From NCBI RefSeq assembly GCF_018141545.1, contig NZ_CP064356.1, forward strand, positions 1,997,001 to 2,061,000: 64,000 nt of DNA. Reading direction: 5' to 3'. This DNA is from Miltoncostaea oceani (lineage in GTDB: Bacteria; Actinomycetota; Thermoleophilia; Miltoncostaeales; Miltoncostaeaceae). A program made the position numbers and the translations under genes. Under the pieces are notes generated by a model that had not been told where the DNA came from, ran no database searches, and was given only the letters and a program-made list of their open reading frames with translations. Below, in pieces: positions 43,076 to 61,950 of this stretch (its first letter is position 1; each line of letters opens with the position of its first letter).

Positions 43076-43148
43076 GCGCGCGTAGCTCAGTGGATAGAGC
43101 GCTGGCCTCCGGAGCCAGAAGTCGCAGGTTCGAATCCTGCCGCGCGCA
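43076..43148 (+). tRNA. tRNA-Arg (anticodon CCG)
   Basis: A complete cloverleaf: acceptor GCGCGCG pairs with CGCGCGC, D stem GCTC/GAGC, anticodon stem CTGGC/GCCAG with loop CTCCGGA (anticodon CCG at 43109-43111), T stem GCAGG/CCTGC with loop TTCGAAT, and discriminator A. The length is 73 nt, and CCA is not encoded. It reads the CGG arginine codon, common in this GC-rich DNA. Confidence 0.98.
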
Positions 43149-43265
43149 CTCGCCGGGATCCCCCATTCCCAGGGGGTCTCGGCGTCTCCGCGTCCCGCCG
43201 GTCCGTGACCGCGCCGAGGACCGCCCGCCCGCCGTACGCGACGCCACCCTCGCCCGCGGACGGGG

Positions 43266-43994
43266 TCAGCGCCGGGGCCCCAGGACCACGTCGCTCCCGA
43301 GCGTCCCCGCGACGACCTCCCCGGCGACGTCGCCGATGCGCCGGCTCCGGCCCCGGGCGTAGCGGCGCATGCGGCCGAAGGCATGGTCGACCCCGATGCC
43401 CGCGGTCTGGGCGAGGATGCCCTTCGCCTGCTCGATCACGATCCGGCTGCGGAGGGCGTCCTCCAGCTGGTCGGTGACCACGTGGAGCTCGTTCGTCGCG
43501 CGTCGCTGCAGCAGGGCGATCGTCGCGACGTCCGCGAGGGCCTGTGCGATCGCGATGTCGGACCGCGTGAGCATCACGGGCTCGGTGCGGAACAGGTTGA
43601 GGGTGCCGAGGACCTGGTCGCGGAGCCGCAGGGGCACCGCGTGGGCGGCGTGGTACCCGGCGCGGAGGGCGACGGGCGCGAACGCCGGCCAGCGGTCGGC
43701 GTGGTCGGCGAGGTTCGCGACGTTGACGGGGGCACCCGTCCGGACGCAGTCGCGGCAGGGCCCCTCGTCGTTCTGCACCTGGAAGAGCTCCATCGCCTCG
43801 GTGGCCTCGTTCGTCGCCGCCATCAGCACGAGGTCGCCGTGGCCGTTCACGAGCAGCAGGCCCGCGGCGGACGCGTCGAGCAGGTCGACCGAGCTCTCGG
43901 TCAGGCGTGTGGTGAGGTCGACGACGTCGAAGTCGTCGACGAGGTTGTCGGCGAGCTCGACCAGCGTCCTCGCCAGGCGCTCCTCCCGGCTCAC
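43266..43994 (-). CDS. GAF-ANTAR RNA-binding antiterminator
   Basis: A 242-residue protein with an N-terminal GAF domain (VDLLDASAAGLLLVNGHGD, ELFQVQNDEGPCRDCV, VPLRLRDQVLGTLNLF) and a C-terminal ANTAR helix bundle (LRSRIVIEQAKGILAQ). ANTAR domains bind paired hairpins in mRNA and prevent termination; GAF would sense a small ligand or redox state. The paralog at 57158 has the same layout. GTG at 43994 with GGGGAG 5-6 nt upstream. Confidence 0.93.
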   Translation of the reverse strand: MSREERLARTLVELADNLVDDFDVVDLTTRLTESSVDLLDASAAGLLLVNGHGDLVLMAATNEATEAMELFQVQNDEGPCRDCVRTGAPVNVANLADHADRWPAFAPVALRAGYHAAHAVPLRLRDQVLGTLNLFRTEPVMLTRSDIAIAQALADVATIALLQRRATNELHVVTDQLEDALRSRIVIEQAKGILAQTAGIGVDHAFGRMRRYARGRSRRIGDVAGEVVAGTLGSDVVLGPRR

Positions 43995-44360
43995 GGGCGC
44001 TCCCCCCACCGCCGTGCTCCCGGACGATGTCCGACCACCCGTCACCTCCGGCCCGCGCGACGATGCATGGCCGCCGGGTCTGGGGCGGGGCGCCCGTGAC
44101 GGAACCTCCGTCCGGGCGTCAGCCGCGACGCTACCAGCCCGCCCGGAGGGCGCGGCCGGTGACGGTCCCCCGCCGCACGGCCCCGCACCGGCTCCGGCGT
44201 CCCCCGACCCGGGGGATCGCGGGATCGCTCCCACGTGCCGATGGGCGGGTGAGGATCGTCCACCTGAACCGGCCCGCCGGGCCGACTGGGCCGTCACCGG
44301 CCTCCTCCCCGGACGATCGCATGACCCCGCGCCGACGCGCAGGGGTCGGGAAGGTTCCCC
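43995..44360. other. Intergenic region, divergent promoters
   Basis: 366 bp between the divergent GAF-ANTAR and collagen-like genes. No ORF with family-like sequence and no clear hairpin was found. No convincing -10/-35 pair stands out. Confidence 0.5.
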
Positions 44361-45193
44361 ATGCGTCCCCATCTGCCGGCACGCGGACTCCTGCTGTGCG
44401 CGGCCGTCGCCGCGCTCGGCCTGTCCGCCATGACCGGCTCCGCCTCCGCGGCGACGTCGTCACCCCCGCGCGACTGCGCGCCACCCGCGTTCGCCGGGAG
44501 CATCGAGGCGCAGGCCGCCGGCAAGTGCGTCCCCCTCCCGGCCGTCTGCCGCGCCCCCCGGGCCCGCGGCCTGCGGGGCGTCGCCGGCGCGACCGGCGCC
44601 CGTGGGAAGGTCGGCGCCACCGGGCGCCGCGGCGTCGCCGGGCCCGTCGGTCCCGCCGGCGCGGACGGCGCCACCGGTACGACGGGCGCCACCGGCGCGA
44701 CCGGCGCTCCGGGCCCCGTCGGCGCGACGGGCGTGGCCGGCCCCACCGGACCCGCCGGCGCGACCGGGCCCGCCGGCCTGAACGGGCTCGCCGAGTACGC
44801 CTACGTCTACAACACCGGCGGCGCGGTCATCGCGCTGGAGGCCGACGTGCCCCTCGACGCCAACGGCGTCATGACGCCCGGCATCACCCACGCCCCGGGG
44901 GACCCGGGATCACCCTCGTCACCGCCGGCACGTACGCGGTGACGTTCTCCGTCGCCGGCGTCGAGCCGAACCAGATGGCGCTCTTCCAGAACGGCGCCCT
45001 CGTCCCCGGCTCGATCCACGGGTCCGGCGCCGGGACGCAGCCCTCGACCGGCCGGGTCATCGTGATCGCCGGCGCCGGCGACGTGCTCACGGTGAGGAAC
45101 CACACCTCCTCCGCCGCTGTCACCCTCCAGACCCTCGCGGGCGGCACCGAGGCGAACTCCAACGCCTCCGTCCTCATCGAGAAGCTCGGGTAG
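44361..45193 (+). CDS. Secreted collagen-like protein, frameshifted
   Basis: The protein has a signal peptide ([20 protein letters not shown]), a short N-terminal domain with three cysteines, about 24 Gly-X-Y triplets (44570-44800, many GATG and GPAG) and a C-terminal beta domain. The last resembles the trimerising BclA C-terminal domain ([39 protein letters not shown]). Frame 1 stops at 44942 but the beta domain is in another frame. Adding one base in the C/G runs at 44893-44908 restores 278 codons, 277 residues. It probably forms a cell-surface trimer. Confidence 0.75.
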
Positions 45194-45247: not shown

Positions 45248-45988
45248 TCACCCCGGCGGGTGCCCGTCTACCGACCCCGGGGGGAACGCGAAGTCCATTG
45301 TGACCGTGGTGCCCCCGCCGTCGGACGCGACCCCGATGCGGTCCGTCAGGGCGCACATCACGAGCCGTCCCCGGCCACGCGACCGTCCCGGCGACGGGGC
45401 CGTCGGGGACCCCAGCGGCAACGTCGCCCCGAGGCGGCCCTCGTCGCTCACCGACACCCGCGCCCGGTCGCCGTCGACGCGGAGGCCCACCAGGACGCGC
45501 CCGCCCTCCGGGGAGCCGTGCTCGACGGCGTTCGCCACGGCCTCCGTCACCGCCAGGATGATGCGGGCGCACGTCTCGTCGTCGCACCGCGCCCGCGCCA
45601 GCAGCCCGGTGAGCACCCGGCGGACGGAGGACAGGGTCCCGGCGTCGGCGAGGACCCGCAGGTGGTCGCCGCCCGGGACCCCGGCGGCGGCGGTCGCCCG
45701 GCCGCGGACCGCGTCGTGGTGGCGGGCCCACTCGGCGACGAACCGGGGCCGGTCGCCCGCGATCCGCGCGTGGAGCGCGCAGACGTCCACCGTGCGCCGG
45801 TGCGTGCCCCGGACCCGCGCCACGGCGGGGTGGCCACACCGCTCGGCGCCCGGCCGGCTCCGCGTGAGGAGGAGGGCCTGACAGCGTTCGCGGTCCACGA
45901 CCTCCGCGGTACGTCCGGCCCATGCGACCTCGCCGGCGGCGGTGGCACCGTCGGCCACCCGGTCGTCCCGCACCCCTGTGATCCCCAC
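45248..45988 (-). CDS. HATPase anti-sigma-type kinase with Cys/His N-terminal region
   Basis: A 246-residue protein. The C-terminal half is a GHKL ATPase of the RsbW/SpoIIAB type: N box LAVTEAVANAVEHG, then VSVSDEGRLG, GRSRGRGRLVMCAL and GGGTTVTM. The N-terminal part has RCGHPAVAR and VDVCALHARIAG, a possible zinc site. Such kinases bind sigma factors or phosphorylate STAS antagonists. GTG at 45988 with AGGGG 6-7 nt upstream; a TTG at 46081 is the longest start. It is downstream of and in line with a PP2C phosphatase, its probable counterpart. Confidence 0.8.
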   Translation of the reverse strand: MGITGVRDDRVADGATAAGEVAWAGRTAEVVDRERCQALLLTRSRPGAERCGHPAVARVRGTHRRTVDVCALHARIAGDRPRFVAEWARHHDAVRGRATAAAGVPGGDHLRVLADAGTLSSVRRVLTGLLARARCDDETCARIILAVTEAVANAVEHGSPEGGRVLVGLRVDGDRARVSVSDEGRLGATLPLGSPTAPSPGRSRGRGRLVMCALTDRIGVASDGGGTTVTMDFAFPPGSVDGHPPG

Positions 45989-46087
45989 CGTGGTCCCCTC
46001 GTCGCGGGAGCCGCCGGGGTCTCGGGCAGCGTTCCGGTCACTGGTGCCCCGAACGGCCGCCGCCGAATCACACGGCCGCAACCGGGG

Positions 46088-47533
46088 TCACGCGCCGGCG
46101 GGCTCCGGCGCCACGGCCAGGCACACCGCCGTCGCGTCGTCGTCGAGCCCGTCGGGGCTCGCCCGGAGGACCGCGGCGTGGATGTGCCGGACCGTCGAGG
46201 AGGCGCTCCGGTCGCGTGACCGCCGGGCGGCGGAGACGACCGCGTCCATCCCGAGCCCCACCTGGTCGGGCCCGGACCTCACGATCCCGTCGGACACCAT
46301 GACCAGGCGGTCCCCCGGCCCCAGCGACGACACGACCTGCGACGGAGCCGGCCCCGCGCGACCCCCGAGGCCCCGCCCCCCGGGGAACCGCACCCGCTCG
46401 ACGGTTCCGTGCGCCCGGAGGATCACCGGCGGGACGTGGCCGCAGTCGACCATCCGCAGGACGGACGTCGACGCGTTCCAGTGGACCCCGAGCGCCGTCA
46501 TCTCCATGTGGGGTCCCGGCATCTCGCGGAGCGTCTGGTGCATCGCGATCAGGGCCTCGGGGACGTCGGCGCCGCTGCGGCGGCTCGCACGGAGCGCGCC
46601 GAGCGCGACCGCGCTGCTGGCCGCTGCGCGGGTCGTGCCGCCGAGTCCGTCGGCGATGGTGATCCACAACCCGTCGGGGTTCTCGACGATGTCGAACCAG
46701 TCGCCGGCGACCTCGTAGCTCGGCAGGACGTTGCCGGCGACCTCCCCGCCCGTGACCTGGGAGATCCGGGGCGGCAGCAGGCTCTGCTGGATCTCGGCCG
46801 CCGCCACCGGGCGCTTGCGCCGCTGCGCCTGCGCGAAGACGTCGGTGTAGCGGTCGGCGAGCGTGATCGCGGCGGCCGCCTGGCGGGCCATGTCGTCGAG
46901 GGGCTGCGCCGGCCGGCCGAACGCGATCATCACCCCGATCGCGCGCCCGCGCAGCCAGAGGGGGACGACGTGAGCCGGCTCGGGATGCGTCTCGAGGTGC
47001 GCGTGGAGGTGCTGCAGCGCCTCCACGTCGAGCTCGGGGCCGACGGCGAGCGGGGCCTCGAGCAGGTCCGGCAGGCGTCGCGGGCCCGCGACCCGCAGGA
47101 GGTACGTGCCGTCGATGTCGAGCACGTAGAGGGCGACGGGGACCCCGGCGATGCGGGCCGCCTCCGCGACCAGCTGACCGGGGAGCTGCGCGGGCGGCAC
47201 GGCGTCCATGACGTGGATGGCGTCGAGCACCACGGGCCCGGTCCGCCCGAGGCGGCCGGCCGGCAGGTGCCCCGCGCCCGCCGCCGGCCTCGGGCTGCGG
47301 CGCCGCTCGGACACCGCCGCGACCACCCCGTCGCGGTCACCGAAGTGGCGGTACACCGTCGTCCGCGACGTGCCCGCCGCGGCGGCGATGTCCCCGACGG
47401 TCGCCCCCGGCGACTGCCCCAGCAGGCGCCCGGCGGCCGCGAGGATCCGCTCGCGGCTGCGCACCGCGTCGGCCCTCCGGGGCTCGGAGGCGTCCGGGCC
47501 GCCGGCGGACGTGGGTGGGACGTCCTCGGTCAC
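46088..47533 (-). CDS. TetR-HTH / GAF / PP2C (SpoIIE-type) fusion protein
   Basis: A 481-residue protein with three modules. Residues ~20-75 are a TetR-type HTH (ERILAAAGRLLGQS, TVGDIAAAAGTSRTTVYRHF). A GAF-like domain follows (VALYVLDIDGTYLLRVAG, VPLWLRGRAIGVMIAFG). The C-terminal 240 residues are a PP2C/SpoIIE phosphatase with YEVAGDWFDIV, ITIADGLGG, MVSDGIVRSGPD and DDDATAVCLA metal aspartates. TetR HTH joined to PP2C is rare; it suggests a phosphatase that binds DNA or a recruited HTH. GTG at 47533 is used; a GTG at 47590 would add 19 residues. Confidence 0.88.
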   Translation of the reverse strand: MTEDVPPTSAGGPDASEPRRADAVRSRERILAAAGRLLGQSPGATVGDIAAAAGTSRTTVYRHFGDRDGVVAAVSERRRSPRPAAGAGHLPAGRLGRTGPVVLDAIHVMDAVPPAQLPGQLVAEAARIAGVPVALYVLDIDGTYLLRVAGPRRLPDLLEAPLAVGPELDVEALQHLHAHLETHPEPAHVVPLWLRGRAIGVMIAFGRPAQPLDDMARQAAAAITLADRYTDVFAQAQRRKRPVAAAEIQQSLLPPRISQVTGGEVAGNVLPSYEVAGDWFDIVENPDGLWITIADGLGGTTRAAASSAVALGALRASRRSGADVPEALIAMHQTLREMPGPHMEMTALGVHWNASTSVLRMVDCGHVPPVILRAHGTVERVRFPGGRGLGGRAGPAPSQVVSSLGPGDRLVMVSDGIVRSGPDQVGLGMDAVVSAARRSRDRSASSTVRHIHAAVLRASPDGLDDDATAVCLAVAPEPAGA

Positions 47534-47737
47534 GGCGACAGCCTGTCGGAACGCCGCGCGGCCGTCGCCCCCGGGCGTGCGATCTGACACACGTTCGGTC
47601 ACCGTCGTGGCGCATTTCGGGTGCCGGGGCCCCGCCCCGGTTCGCCGTACCGGCCCCGGGTAGGCAGCGCTCCCGAACGACATCGACCGGCCGGGGGGAC
47701 GACGCCCGCCGGCCCCAATCCACACGGGAGGCACCGA

Positions 47738-48995: not shown

Positions 48996-51260
48996 TCAGG
49001 CGGGGCCGGCCTCCCGGGTCGCCACCTCGTCCGGGACGCGACGGCCGACGCCGTCGTGCGGCGGCTCGATCGTGAGGTTCGGGAGGACCCGCTCGAGCCA
49101 GCGCGGGATGTACCACGACTTCTCGCCGAGCAGCGTCAGCAACGCCGGGACGAGCGTCATCCGCACCAGCAGGGCGTCCACCAGGATCGCCACGGCCAGC
49201 AGGAGCCCGAACTCCTTCGGGATGCGGTCCGCGCTCAGGATGAACGCCGCGAAGACGGTGCCCATGATGATCGCGGCCGCCACGATGACGCGGCCGATCG
49301 CCGCGATGCCGTGCTCCACCGCCGCCCGGGTGCTGTACCCGTGGACGTGGTTCTCCGTGATCCGGCTCATCAGGAACACCATGTAGTCCATCGAGAGCCC
49401 GAACAGGATCGCGAACGCGATCGGCGGCACGAACGTCTCGATCGGGCCGGTCACGTCGAGACCGGTGAGGCCCAGGAGGTAGCCCTCCTGCACCACCAGG
49501 GTCAGGACGCCGAACCCGACGAAGGCCGACAGGATCGTCGTGATCGCCGCGGTGAGGGCGATCACGGCCGATCGGAACGCCATCGCCAGCACGAGGAACG
49601 TGATGCCGACGATGTAGAGCAGGAAGTACGGCATCCGCTGGAAGATCTGCTCGGCGATGTCCTTGAACGCCGCCGTCTGACCGCTGACGTAGGCCGCGGC
49701 GTCACCCCCGGCGACGGCCTGCGGCACCACCTCGTCGCGGATGCGGTCGACGAGGTCGTCGGTCGCCTCGTCCTGCGGAGCCGACTCCGGCGTCACGAAC
49801 ACGATCGCGACCGTGCGGTCGTCGTTGAAGACCGGCTCGCCGACGCGGGCGACGTCCTCGACGCCATCGAGCCCGTCGGCGATCCTCTGGGGGGCCCCGG
49901 GGTCGCCGTTCACGTCGATCACGACGGGGATGGGGCCGTTGAAGCCGCGACCGAAGCCCTCCGCCAGCAGGTCGTACGCGCGCCGGCTCGTCTGCTCGTC
50001 GGGCTGGGTGCCCTGGTCGGCGGCGCCCAGGCGCACCAGGGACGACGTCGATGCGAGGACGAGGATCAGCAGCAGGACCCCCGGGAAGATGATCTTCGCG
50101 TGGGCGCAGACGAACCGGCCGTAGCGCGCGATGAACGTCTTCTCGCGCCCCTCCTCCGAGTCGTCGAGCTGCTTCAGGAAGGGCACCTTCAGACGGTCGA
50201 CCTTCGTACCGAGCAGCGACAGCACCGACAGCAGCAGGGAGTTCGCGATCAGGACCGTCGTGAGGACGCCGAGGGCGCTGCCGAAGCCGAGGATCGTGAC
50301 GAACTTCAGCCCGATGAGCGCGAGGCCCGTGACGGAGATCGCGACGGTGACGCCCGCGAAGATCACGGCGCGCCCCGCGGACGCCCCGGCCTCGGCCGCC
50401 GCGTCGCGTGGCGAGAGCCCCGCGTGCAGCAGCTCGCGGAAGCGCGTCACGATGAACAACGAGTAGTCGATGCCGACGCCGAGGCCGATCATCGAGACCA
50501 GGATCGGCGTGACCGTGTTGACGTCGGTCAGGCCGGCCATGATGAACAGCAGCAGGAACGCCGTGGCGAGCGCCACGATCGCGAGCGCGATGGGGATGAT
50601 CATCGCGACGAGCGTCCGGAAGACGACGAGCAGCACGATGATCGCCGCGAGCAGGCCGAGCAGCTCCGCGGAGCCCTGCTCGATCGGCGGGAATTCGGCG
50701 TCGCCGTTGTACTCGACGGTCACCCCCACCGGGGCGACGGCCTCGCGGAAGAAGTCCTGGACCTCCACGACCCGGTCGCGGTCGGCCTCCTCGATGGTCT
50801 GGTCGAACTGCGCCTCGGCGTAGGCGATGCGCCCGTCCTGCGACACGGTCGCCGGGTCGAGCGGGTCCTTCACGTCGACCAGCCCGGCCTCGCCGTCGAC
50901 GGGCGTGTCCGACGCCGGCGCGAACCGGGTGCGCGCCTCCGCGACGGCCGCCTCGATCGCCGCGCGGCGCTCGGGCGTGTCGAGCCGCTCGCCCTCGGGC
51001 GCCGCGAACACGACGTTCAGGACGCCGCCCTGCTCGGCGGCGAACTCGGTCTCGATCAGGTCCGTCGCCTTCTGGGTGTCGGACCCGGGGATGTCGAACT
51101 CGTCCCGCAGCGACCCGCCCACCGTCGCGACGAGCGCGATCAGCACGACGATGATGCCGAGCCAGCCGAGGACCGTCTTCCACGGGTTGTAGGCGAACCA
51201 GCGGGCCAGGCGCGCGAGGGCCCCCGTCGACGTGCGCTCGTGCTCGCGAAGCCCTGACAC
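48996..51260 (-). CDS. MMPL family RND transporter
   Basis: A 754-residue transporter with the MMPL/RND plan: one helix at the start ([20 protein letters not shown]), a large exterior domain, five or six helices ([20 protein letters not shown] and on, with [20 protein letters not shown]), then the repeat with a second set ([18 protein letters not shown]). The paired Asp-Tyr motifs GIDYSLF and SMDYMVF are those used for proton coupling. Substrates are often lipids, but here unknown. GTG at 51260 has GGAGG 7 nt upstream. Confidence 0.95.
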
Positions 51261-51382
51261 CTTCCGTCCTCCCCGTTCGTGGGCGCGTCCGACGCGGCCC
51301 CGTGGACCGCAGCTCGCGACGTCCGCGCCGCCCGACGAGAGGGATCTCCCCGCCGGCGCCGGACCATCTCGATCGAAGCGCG

Positions 51383-51413
51383 ATTCTATGGTCCGAACCG
51401 GATGGCGGCGCAA
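51383..51413 (-). promoter_or_regulatory. Promoter of the MMPL gene
   Basis: TAGAAT (51388-51383) is a near-consensus -10 with TTGCGC (51413-51408) 19 nt upstream. The leader would be ~115 nt. The rest of the 51261-51615 gap contains no gene; near-identical CCGATCGGTG words occur at 51494 and 51517. Confidence 0.5.
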
Positions 51414-51615
51414 GCCCCGGAGGGCGATCCCGACGGCCCCGTCCCGTCCCCGGGGAGGGCCGGCCGTCCCGGGGGACCGCCGGCGACCATCCTCCGATCG
51501 GTGCCGCCACGATCATCCGATCGGTGATCGCGCCGGACTGCACCCCGGGGCCCGTCTCGCCGATGAGCAGGGTGGGATCCCCCCGGATCGGCCCACCCCG
51601 TCCCGAGGACCGCGC

Positions 51616-53304
51616 GTGCCCGGATCAACGGACCGACACCCGACGACCACCGAGCCGGACCCGCTGGTGCGCCTCGTGACGCAGAAGGACGCGCTGCTGC
51701 GCGTCGCGCGCGAGGTCGCCGGCGGGGCGCCGCCCGCCGCGGTGTTCGCCACCGTCGCCCGCGAGGTCGCCGACATCCTCGGCGCCGAGGCGGGGATCGT
51801 CTGGCGCTACACCGACGAGGGCTCGCTCGTGGTGGGGTCGCACGGGGAGCACCGGTCCCGGCTCGGCGTGACGTTCCCCCTCGCGGGTGACGGCGCCGTC
51901 GTGGTCGTCTCCCGCACCGGTCGCCCGGCCCGGTGCACCTACCCCGCGCTCCCCCCCACCGACCCCACCACCGCGCGCGTCGGGGGGCAGGGCTACACCA
52001 GCGGGGTCGCGGCGCCCCTCAGCGTCGGCGGGCGCCTGTGGGGCGCCGTCCTCGCCGCGACGACGGGCCCCGCCCCGTTCCCCCCCGACGCGGAGGAGCG
52101 ACTGGAGCAGTTCGCGGAGATGGCGGCCCTCGCGATCGCGAACGCCCAGGCCCGCGAGGAGCTCACGCTGCTCGCGACCATCGACGGGCTCACCGGGGTG
52201 GTCAACCAGGGCGAGTTCCACCGCCGCCTCGACACCGAGGTCGCCCGCGCCCGCCGCCACGGGCGCCCCCTCGCGCTGGTGGTCCTCGACCTCGACCACT
52301 TCAAGCGCGTCAACGACGACCGGGGCCACCAGGTCGGGGACCGCGTCCTGCAGCACGCGGCACGTGCGATCGCCGGGGGGCTGCGCTCCGAGGACGTCCT
52401 CGCCCGCGTCGGCGGCGAGGAGTTCGCCGTCATCCTGCCCGAGGTCGACGCCCGGGCCGGCGTCGCGGCGGCGGAGCGCATGCGCTGCGCCGTGGCGCGG
52501 GTCCACGAGGAGGGCATCCCCGCGGTGACCGCCTCGGCCGGCGTCGCGGAGCTCCGCGACACGGGGGACCACGACGCGCTGTTCGCCGCCGCCGACCAGG
52601 CCCTCTACGTCGCGAAGGGCGCCGGCCGCAACCGGGTCCACCGGTACGACCCCGCCGACCCGCGCCAGGCGACCGCCGCCGCGCCGGGGGCGACGCCCTC
52701 GGAGGCCCTCGCCGCGGTCCGCGCGCTGGCGCTCGCGGTCGAGGCGAAGGACCCCGCGACCCGCCGCCACAGCGAGAGGGTCGCGTCGCTGGTGGGCCGC
52801 ATGGCGGCCGCCGCCGGATGGGGCGCCCGGGAGATCGACGCGCTCCGCCAGGCCGCCCTCGTCCACGACGTCGGCAAGATCGGGGTCCCCGACCGCGTGC
52901 TGCTGCAGACCGGTCCGTTGACGTCCGCGGAGTACGAGCGGGTGAAGGTGCACCCCGCCCTCGGGGCCGGCATCGTGGCCGAGGTCCTCGGCCCGGCCCA
53001 GACCGCGTGGGTGCGCCACCACCACGAGCGGGCCGACGGGTCCGGCTACCCGGACGGCCTCGCGGGTGCGGACATCCCGGAGGGCGCGCGCCTGATGGCC
53101 GTCGCCGACGCCTTCGACGTCATGACGCGCGGCCGCGCCTACGCCCCGGCACGCACCCCGGAGGCGTCGCTCGCGGAGATCCGGGACCTCGCGGGCGTCC
53201 AGTTCGACCCTGCCGCGGTTGCGGCGCTGGAGGACGTCCTCGCCGGGGGCGGCGGCGGCGACGGTCAGCCGGCGAGCAGCGCCTCCAGGCGGACCTCGGG
53301 GTAG
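51616..53304 (+). CDS. GAF-GGDEF-HD-GYP c-di-GMP protein
   Basis: A 562-residue protein with a GAF domain ([19 protein letters not shown]), a diguanylate cyclase domain with active GGEEF and an I-site RSED five residues before it, and an HD-GYP phosphodiesterase ([42 protein letters not shown]). It could make and break c-di-GMP; the domain balance cannot be judged from sequence. GTG at 51616 has GAGGA 6 nt upstream; the longer frame upstream is not conserved. Its last 40 bp overlap the 3' end of the convergent prfC. Confidence 0.92.
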
Positions 53305-61512: not shown

Positions 61513-61950
61513 TCACGCGCCGGCGGCCCCGTCGCGGGGGGTGAGGCGCAGGCGCACCTCGGTGCCGCCGTCGCGGTCGCGCCAGTCGACCTCGTCCGCG
61601 AGGTCCCGCATGATCGCGCGCCCCCGTCCCCGCACCGACGAGGGGCCGGGGCGCCGGGGCGGCCCGGCGGGGACCGACGCCCCCGGCCGCCCCCGGTCCC
61701 GCACGACGATCTCGGCCCCCTCCTCGTCGACGTCGACCACCACCTCGACCGGCGCGCGGGGGACCGACCCGTGCTCGACCGCGTTCTGGACGGCCTCGTC
61801 CACCGCGAGCGCGGCGCCGGCGACGTCGTCGCGCGACCACCCGGCGTCGCGCAGCGCACCGGCGACGAGCTCACGGGCGTGGGTCGGCGCCTCGGGCGTG
61901 GCGGGCAGGCGGACCGCGGTGCGGTCGGCCTGCGGCGTCCCCCCGGTCAC
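61513..61950 (-). CDS. HATPase anti-sigma-type kinase
   Basis: A 145-residue RsbW-like GHKL ATPase. N box ALAVDEAVQNAVEHG, G1 VVRDRGRPG and G2 SSVRGRGRAIMRDLADEV. It would bind a sigma factor or phosphorylate an antagonist, but no sigma or STAS gene is adjacent. GTG overlaps the upstream stop as GTGA. Confidence 0.88.
   Translation of the reverse strand: MTGGTPQADRTAVRLPATPEAPTHARELVAGALRDAGWSRDDVAGAALAVDEAVQNAVEHGSVPRAPVEVVVDVDEEGAEIVVRDRGRPGASVPAGPPRRPGPSSVRGRGRAIMRDLADEVDWRDRDGGTEVRLRLTPRDGAAGA

What the first reader, a model, noticed from the sequence alone, without database searches (positions are those of the whole stretch)
46088..47533. TetR HTH fused to a PP2C phosphatase
An N-terminal TetR helix-turn-helix, a GAF-like sensor and a SpoIIE phosphatase occur in one chain. 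PP2C proteins of partner switching usually carry PAS, GAF or CHASE sensors, not DNA-binding heads. It may couple dephosphorylation to a DNA site or use the HTH as a dimeriser. A kinase-type HATPase lies next to it.
Basis: partly seen in the sequence, partly recalled or inferred. Interest (0 to 1): 0.65.

Follow-up and report, generated by a model that had tools for sequence, protein, structure and literature searches.

The report
DNA-binding head on a stress-switch phosphatase
A soil-bacterium protein joins a gene-repressor's DNA-gripping head to a phosphatase of the stress-response switch; the same build recurs across its bacterial class with a shared DNA landing site beside the gene, so one molecule probably acts both on DNA and on the protein switch.

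Summary
Window 46088-47533 (-) encodes one 481-residue chain: TetR_N helix-turn-helix, GAF domain, RsbU/SpoIIE-type PP2C phosphatase. It is not a frame error: a 73% identical paralogue lies elsewhere in the genome, and 57 genes in five families of Thermoleophilia carry the head in frame; 52 of 52 aligned members match both Pfam families. A sister clade has the same phosphatase without the head.

The head looks like a working DNA binder. Residues R57, T59, R62 and R67 are (nearly) invariant. Upstream regions of head-bearing genes share a 23-bp palindrome, AAcYGgGACANNNTGTCcCRgTT (log-likelihood 183, shuffles 37-43). In 31 of 57 loci the best site of the whole locus lies there (1.9 expected). 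Headless members lack it. Strong sites also precede PRC/DUF2382 genes elsewhere in two genomes. The window's own site is weak: one good half-site.

Most genes face membrane-stress genes, some with SigB-type promoters; some adjoin STAS, HATPase or SigB-like sigma genes. Best reading: an RsbU-type sigma-switch phosphatase that also binds an operator between itself and its stress operon, probably as autoregulator. DNA binding is well supported by sequence; repression, phosphatase activity and coupling are inferred. No description was found in the open-access library.

The parts
46088..47533 (-). TetR_N-GAF-SpoIIE/PP2C protein, 481 aa plus stop
   Evidence: translation; Pfam; model; conservation.
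47297..47446 (-). TetR-type helix-turn-helix head (residues 30-79); invariant R57 and R62, near-invariant T59 and R67
   Evidence: TetR_N, residues 30-74; column counts over 52 members.
46856..47221 (-). GAF domain (residues about 105-226)
   Evidence: model of residues 86-243, best Foldseek hits are GAF domains (E 1.5e-4).
46112..46804 (-). PP2C (SpoIIE/RsbU) phosphatase domain (residues 244-474); metal-binding Asp positions 278, 295, 415, 465 and 466 conserved in 48-51 of 52
   Evidence: (Rv1364c RsbU domain, Z 25.3).
47582..47604 (.). Candidate operator ATCTGACACACGTTCGGTCACCG: one good half-site (47582-47591) and a degenerate second half; weak on its own
   Evidence: the same half-site in the paralogue (ATGTGAGACA).
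47640..47663 (+). SigB-type promoter-like element GTTCGC-N12-GGGTAG pointing to the divergent MscS-like gene; conserved in the paralogous copy (GTTGGC...GGGTAG)
   Evidence: consensus from PMC8346170.
47738..48541 (+). Divergent mechanosensitive-channel-like membrane protein (MS_channel_1st_1)
   Evidence: E 3.3e-24; the paralogue locus L054 has the same divergent gene.
45248..46081 (-). Downstream co-directional HATPase_c_2 protein (RsbW/anti-sigma-kinase type domain at residues 145-262)
   Evidence: found downstream in only a few relatives.

Best explanation
It is a DNA-binding, RsbU-type sigma-switch phosphatase. The TetR head, paired by dimerisation of the GAF/linker/PP2C part, binds a 23-bp palindrome (AAcYGgGACANNNTGTCcCRgTT) in the intergenic region between its own gene and a divergent membrane-stress operon, and at a few other stress genes. 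There it most likely represses its own promoter and may modulate the divergent one. When the GAF domain senses a signal, the PP2C domain dephosphorylates a STAS anti-anti-sigma protein. This frees a SigB-like sigma factor, which reads GTTT-N12-16-GGGTA promoters such as the one facing the divergent operon. One chain would thus act both as local transcription factor and as activator of the sigma factor for the neighbouring operon. Shown by sequence: one chain, its domains, conserved catalytic and DNA-contact residues, conserved operator-like motif, divergent stress genes. Inferred: DNA binding itself, repression, phosphatase activity, STAS substrate, ligand, and any coupling between DNA binding and activity.
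For: Single frame and domains. Fusion in 57 genes of 44 genomes plus S. taibaiensis; 52 of 52 aligned members match TetR_N and SpoIIE. Recognition helix invariant: R57 52/52, T59 51/52, R62 52/52, R67 51/52. Palindrome: log-likelihood 183 against 37-43 in 8 shuffled sets; with close relatives left out of training, the best site of the locus lies in the 400 nt upstream in 31 of 57 loci, 1.9 expected; column-permuted matrices average 6.2, maximum 18. Clade B alone: log-likelihood 151 at spacer 3, shuffles 35-37; clade C yields the same half-site independently, 84 against 35-45. Headless relatives lack it. No site scoring 12 or more in 765 kb of background, but strong sites outside the training set precede two DUF2382 genes distant from the fusion gene in G271 and G265 and a REC-SpoIIE gene in G279. 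SigB-type promoters toward the divergent gene: 6 of 57 against 0.05 expected, relaxed form 10 against 0.5. STAS, HATPase or SigB-like sigma genes near some members. Own genome has 11 STAS hits, 28 HATPase_c_2 hits and a sigma gene beside the top-scoring HATPase hit.
Against: The window's own operator is weak: only one convincing half-site, rank 11 in 64 kb, and clade A, to which it belongs, is barely above shuffles alone. No strict palindrome match in the own genome. Partner-switching genes adjoin only a minority of members. No experiment shows binding or activity. Outside clade B many loci show only half-sites clearly.
Confidence: 0.6

Rival explanations
1. DNA-tethered or DNA-gated phosphatase: the head does not mainly repress transcription; DNA is an anchor or an allosteric input that holds two phosphatase domains together and switches activity on or off, so that dephosphorylation is tied to operator occupancy.
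For: PPM phosphatases of this group are switched by dimerisation through their linker (PMC12143880). A TetR head on a palindrome would impose a dimer. The linker between head and GAF carries a conserved PPGxLGR motif.
Against: No data on activity. The linker after the head is predicted flexible (pLDDT about 50 at residues 81-100), which argues against rigid coupling. The motif position near the start of the gene suits plain autorepression.
Confidence: 0.2
2. The head is only a dimeriser or an evolutionary leftover and does not bind specific DNA.
For: The window's own operator is weak. TetR folds occur in proteins with non-transcriptional roles (SlmA, RefZ; own knowledge).
Against: DNA-contact residues are invariant, a family-wide palindrome lies upstream of head-bearing genes only, and TetR proteins usually dimerise through the C-terminal domain that is missing here (own knowledge).
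Confidence: 0.1
3. The palindrome belongs to another regulator of the divergent membrane-stress genes, and the fusion protein is merely a member of that regulon.
For: The motif also occurs upstream of DUF2382 and REC-SpoIIE genes without an adjacent fusion gene. One match lies upstream of a stand-alone TetR gene (L155).
Against: The motif is kept although the divergent gene type changes (MscS, BrkB, MpsC, DUF2382). It is absent from headless sister genes (small sample, different neighbours). A constant recognition helix pairs with a constant half-site.
Confidence: 0.12

Closest known systems
RsbU / Rv1364c-type PP2C phosphatases of partner switching (SpoIIE, RsbU, RsbP, SiaA, Pseudomonas RssB)
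   Same: SpoIIE-type PP2C domain behind a sensor and helical linker; best solved match is the RsbU domain of Rv1364c (Z 25.3); metal Asp positions conserved; STAS, HATPase and sigma genes near some members.
   Different: A TetR helix-turn-helix head and a conserved operator-like site; known members carry PAS, GAF, REC, HAMP or RsbU-N heads.
TetR/AcrR family regulators (e.g. LfrR, TtgR)
   Same: TetR_N head with invariant recognition-helix residues; palindromic operator-like site beside the gene; divergent neighbour gene.
   Different: No TetR C-terminal ligand and dimerisation domain; GAF plus PP2C instead.
Headless GAF-PP2C sister clade of the same class (L055, L057, L120 minus strand, L139, L140, L141)
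   Same: Same GAF and PP2C core, about 38-42% identity; STAS genes adjacent in three loci.
   Different: No TetR head and no operator-like site upstream.

Membership tests
SpoIIE/RsbU-type PP2C (PPM) phosphatase | SpoIIE/PP2C domain by profile and fold | tested here: met
   PF07228 E 3.5e-27; Rv1364c Z 25.3, rmsd 2.2 over 213 residues.
SpoIIE/RsbU-type PP2C (PPM) phosphatase | Metal-binding aspartates kept | tested here: met
   D278, D295, D415, D465/D466 in 48-51 of 52 members.
SpoIIE/RsbU-type PP2C (PPM) phosphatase | Dephosphorylates STAS anti-anti-sigma proteins | not testable with these tools
   Needs biochemistry; 11 STAS hits in the genome, one convergent to the paralogue.
TetR/AcrR family transcriptional regulator | TetR_N HTH | tested here: met
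   PF00440 over cut-off; 52 of 52 members match.
TetR/AcrR family transcriptional regulator | C-terminal all-helical ligand-binding and dimerisation domain | tested here: not met
   Model shows GAF and PP2C after the HTH; no NCBIfam TetR equivalog near cut-off.
TetR/AcrR family transcriptional regulator | Palindromic operator close to its own gene | tested here: inconclusive
   Clearly present at family level; for the window copy itself only one good half-site. Binding not tested.
Partner-switching module | STAS antagonist, HATPase anti-sigma/kinase and sigma factor genetically linked to the phosphatase | tested here: inconclusive
   Window copy beside a HATPase, paralogue beside a STAS gene, L135/L136 near STAS and HATPase genes, Solirubrobacter copies upstream of a SigB-like sigma gene; most members have none adjacent.

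The most novel reading that the evidence does not exclude
A promoter-bound phosphatase: the head parks the sigma-switch phosphatase on the operator between its gene and the stress operon, and occupancy of the DNA gates its activity. Sigma-factor release would then be coupled to local promoter state, a direct wiring of DNA binding to protein dephosphorylation in one chain.
Probability: 0.25. Interest if true: 0.85.

Novelty: new variant of a known kind. Interest (0 to 1): 0.63.

Why it matters
Partner-switching phosphatases are taken to act only on proteins, upstream of a sigma factor. A class-wide lineage with a DNA-binding head and its own operator would merge two layers of control, direct repression and sigma-factor release, in one molecule. 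It gives a ready test case, with a predicted binding site, for whether DNA can be an input to a PP2C phosphatase.

Tried and rejected
Frame-error or two-gene reading: rejected by conservation in 57 genes. HATPase as fixed partner: not conserved. Plain palindrome counts and k-mer counts were drowned by GC-rich background; a start-codon word (TGACCGAG) appeared there and was set aside. The strict palindrome gave no site in the own genome. Spacer lengths other than 3 scored lower in clade B. BrkB genes away from the fusion gene showed no strong sites except the shared G271 region. Outside the class, a sample of the phylum gave no full-length head-bearing relative at E 1e-60; this does not exclude unrelated TetR-SpoIIE fusions elsewhere. 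Literature searches found no description, but only open-access papers are held. L105 looks headless but is nested among head-bearing members with its frame broken in two, probably a frameshift.

Full report
OBSERVATION. The minus-strand frame 47533-46088 encodes 481 residues without interruption. Pfam finds TetR_N at residues 30-74 (E 5.5e-9) and SpoIIE at 286-473 (E 3.5e-27); GAF_3 is weak. AlphaFold2 with 52 relatives gives mean pLDDT 90: HTH head, flexible linker (about 81-104), GAF-like domain, PP2C domain. The PP2C domain matches the RsbU domain of Rv1364c at Z 25.3; the middle part alone matches GAF domains.

IT IS A FAMILY, NOT A FRAME ERROR. The genome has a second copy, 73% identical, with the same layout. 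Named relatives are Solirubrobacter deserti and S. taibaiensis at 64%, which places the set in Thermoleophilia. From 399 genomes of the class, I recovered 57 distinct genes with an in-frame head, from 44 genomes plus S. taibaiensis. All 52 aligned members match both TetR_N and SpoIIE. A tree of the shared GAF-PP2C part separates a headless clade from the head-bearing ones, consistent with one gain or loss, though deep forks are not fully supported. A sample of the phylum gave no further head-bearing full-length relative.

THE HEAD LOOKS FUNCTIONAL. R57 and R62 are invariant, T59 and R67 are in 51 of 52, H63 in 48; these lie in and next to the recognition helix. The catalytic aspartates are kept in 48-51 of 52.

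A FAMILY-WIDE OPERATOR-LIKE SITE. Expectation-maximisation on 57 upstream regions found a 23-bp palindrome, AAcYGgGACANNNTGTCcCRgTT, with log-likelihood 183; eight shuffled sets gave 37-43. With relatives of 60% identity or more removed from training, the best-scoring site of the whole locus fell in the 400 nt before the head in 31 of 57 loci; 1.9 expected by position alone. Matrices with permuted columns gave 6.2 on average and 18 at most, so base composition explains part, not all. In clade B the signal is strong and peaks at spacer 3 (151 against 35-37). In clade C the same half-site emerges independently (84 against 35-45). In clade A, which holds the window, it is marginal (42 against 29-38): the window has ATCTGACACA at 47582-47591 and a poor second half, the paralogue ATGTGAGACA. 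Headless relatives have no good site. In 765 kb of surrounding DNA no other site reached 12, whereas two DUF2382/PRC-barrel genes far from the fusion gene have sites of 13.4 and 13.5 upstream (G265 L177, G271 L179), and a REC-SpoIIE gene in G279 has a one-mismatch site about 80 nt upstream. These were not in the training set.

NEIGHBOURHOOD. About two thirds of the loci show a divergent gene directly upstream, usually of a membrane-stress type: MscS-like, BrkB/YihY, holin-like, PRC-DUF2382, MpsC. SigB-type promoters (GTTT-N12-16-GGGTA) point toward the divergent gene in 6 of 57 regions (0.05 expected), 10 in the relaxed form (0.5 expected); toward the fusion gene the numbers are 0 and 2. Three of the hits are near-identical paralogues of one genome. 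The window has GTTCGC-N12-GGGTAG at 47640-47663 before the MscS-like gene, conserved in the paralogous copy; the published SigB consensus is GTTTAA-N12-14-GGG(A/T)A(A/T) (PMC8346170). Partner-switching genes lie next to some members: HATPase (window), STAS (paralogue), STAS and HATPase (L135, L136), SigB-like sigma (Solirubrobacter). The genome holds 11 SpoIIE, 11 STAS and 28 HATPase_c_2 hits, and a sigma-region-3 gene beside the top-scoring HATPase.

MECHANISM. Most likely the protein binds its operator as a dimer, tunes its own gene and perhaps the divergent operon, and on a GAF signal dephosphorylates a STAS protein to release a SigB-like sigma factor that reads the divergent promoter. RsbU-type phosphatases are switched by linker-mediated dimerisation (PMC12143880) and act on STAS proteins (PMC11418112); so a DNA-held dimer could also alter activity, but this is inference.

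COMPARISON AND NOVELTY. As a phosphatase it meets the sequence and fold criteria of the RsbU/SpoIIE group. As a TetR regulator it meets the HTH and, at family level, the operator criterion, but it lacks the TetR C-terminal domain. I found no description in the searched library, which holds only open-access papers. I rate it a new variant of a known kind.

Noticed in passing
L177:890-912 (G265:C16) and L179:962-984 (G271:C3): Operator-like palindromes upstream of PRC/DUF2382 genes with no fusion gene nearby; in G271 the site lies between divergent BrkB and DUF2382 genes.
   Followed up: partly
L152:1501-1523 (G279:C179:22194): One-mismatch operator match about 80 nt upstream of a REC-SpoIIE phosphatase gene, hinting at a phosphatase hierarchy.
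   Followed up: partly
window 47234-47278 (residues about 86-100): Conserved PPGxLGRxxP linear motif in the linker between head and GAF in nearly all members; function unknown.
   Followed up: no
L105 (G136:C5): Apparently headless member nested among head-bearing ones; reading frame split in two, probably a frameshift.
   Followed up: partly
window 43266-44372: GAF-ANTAR protein (putative RNA-binding antiterminator), minus strand, downstream of the HATPase gene.
   Followed up: no
window 51232-53304: Long plus-strand ORF that reads as GAF, GGDEF and HD-GYP (by eye, not searched).
   Followed up: no
window 61546-61908: Second HATPase_c_2 domain in the window, minus strand.
   Followed up: no
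window 43076-43149: tRNA-Arg (ccg).
   Followed up: no
L098, L096, L118 (clade B): MpsC (Na+-translocating membrane-potential system) gene divergent to the fusion gene in these loci.
   Followed up: no
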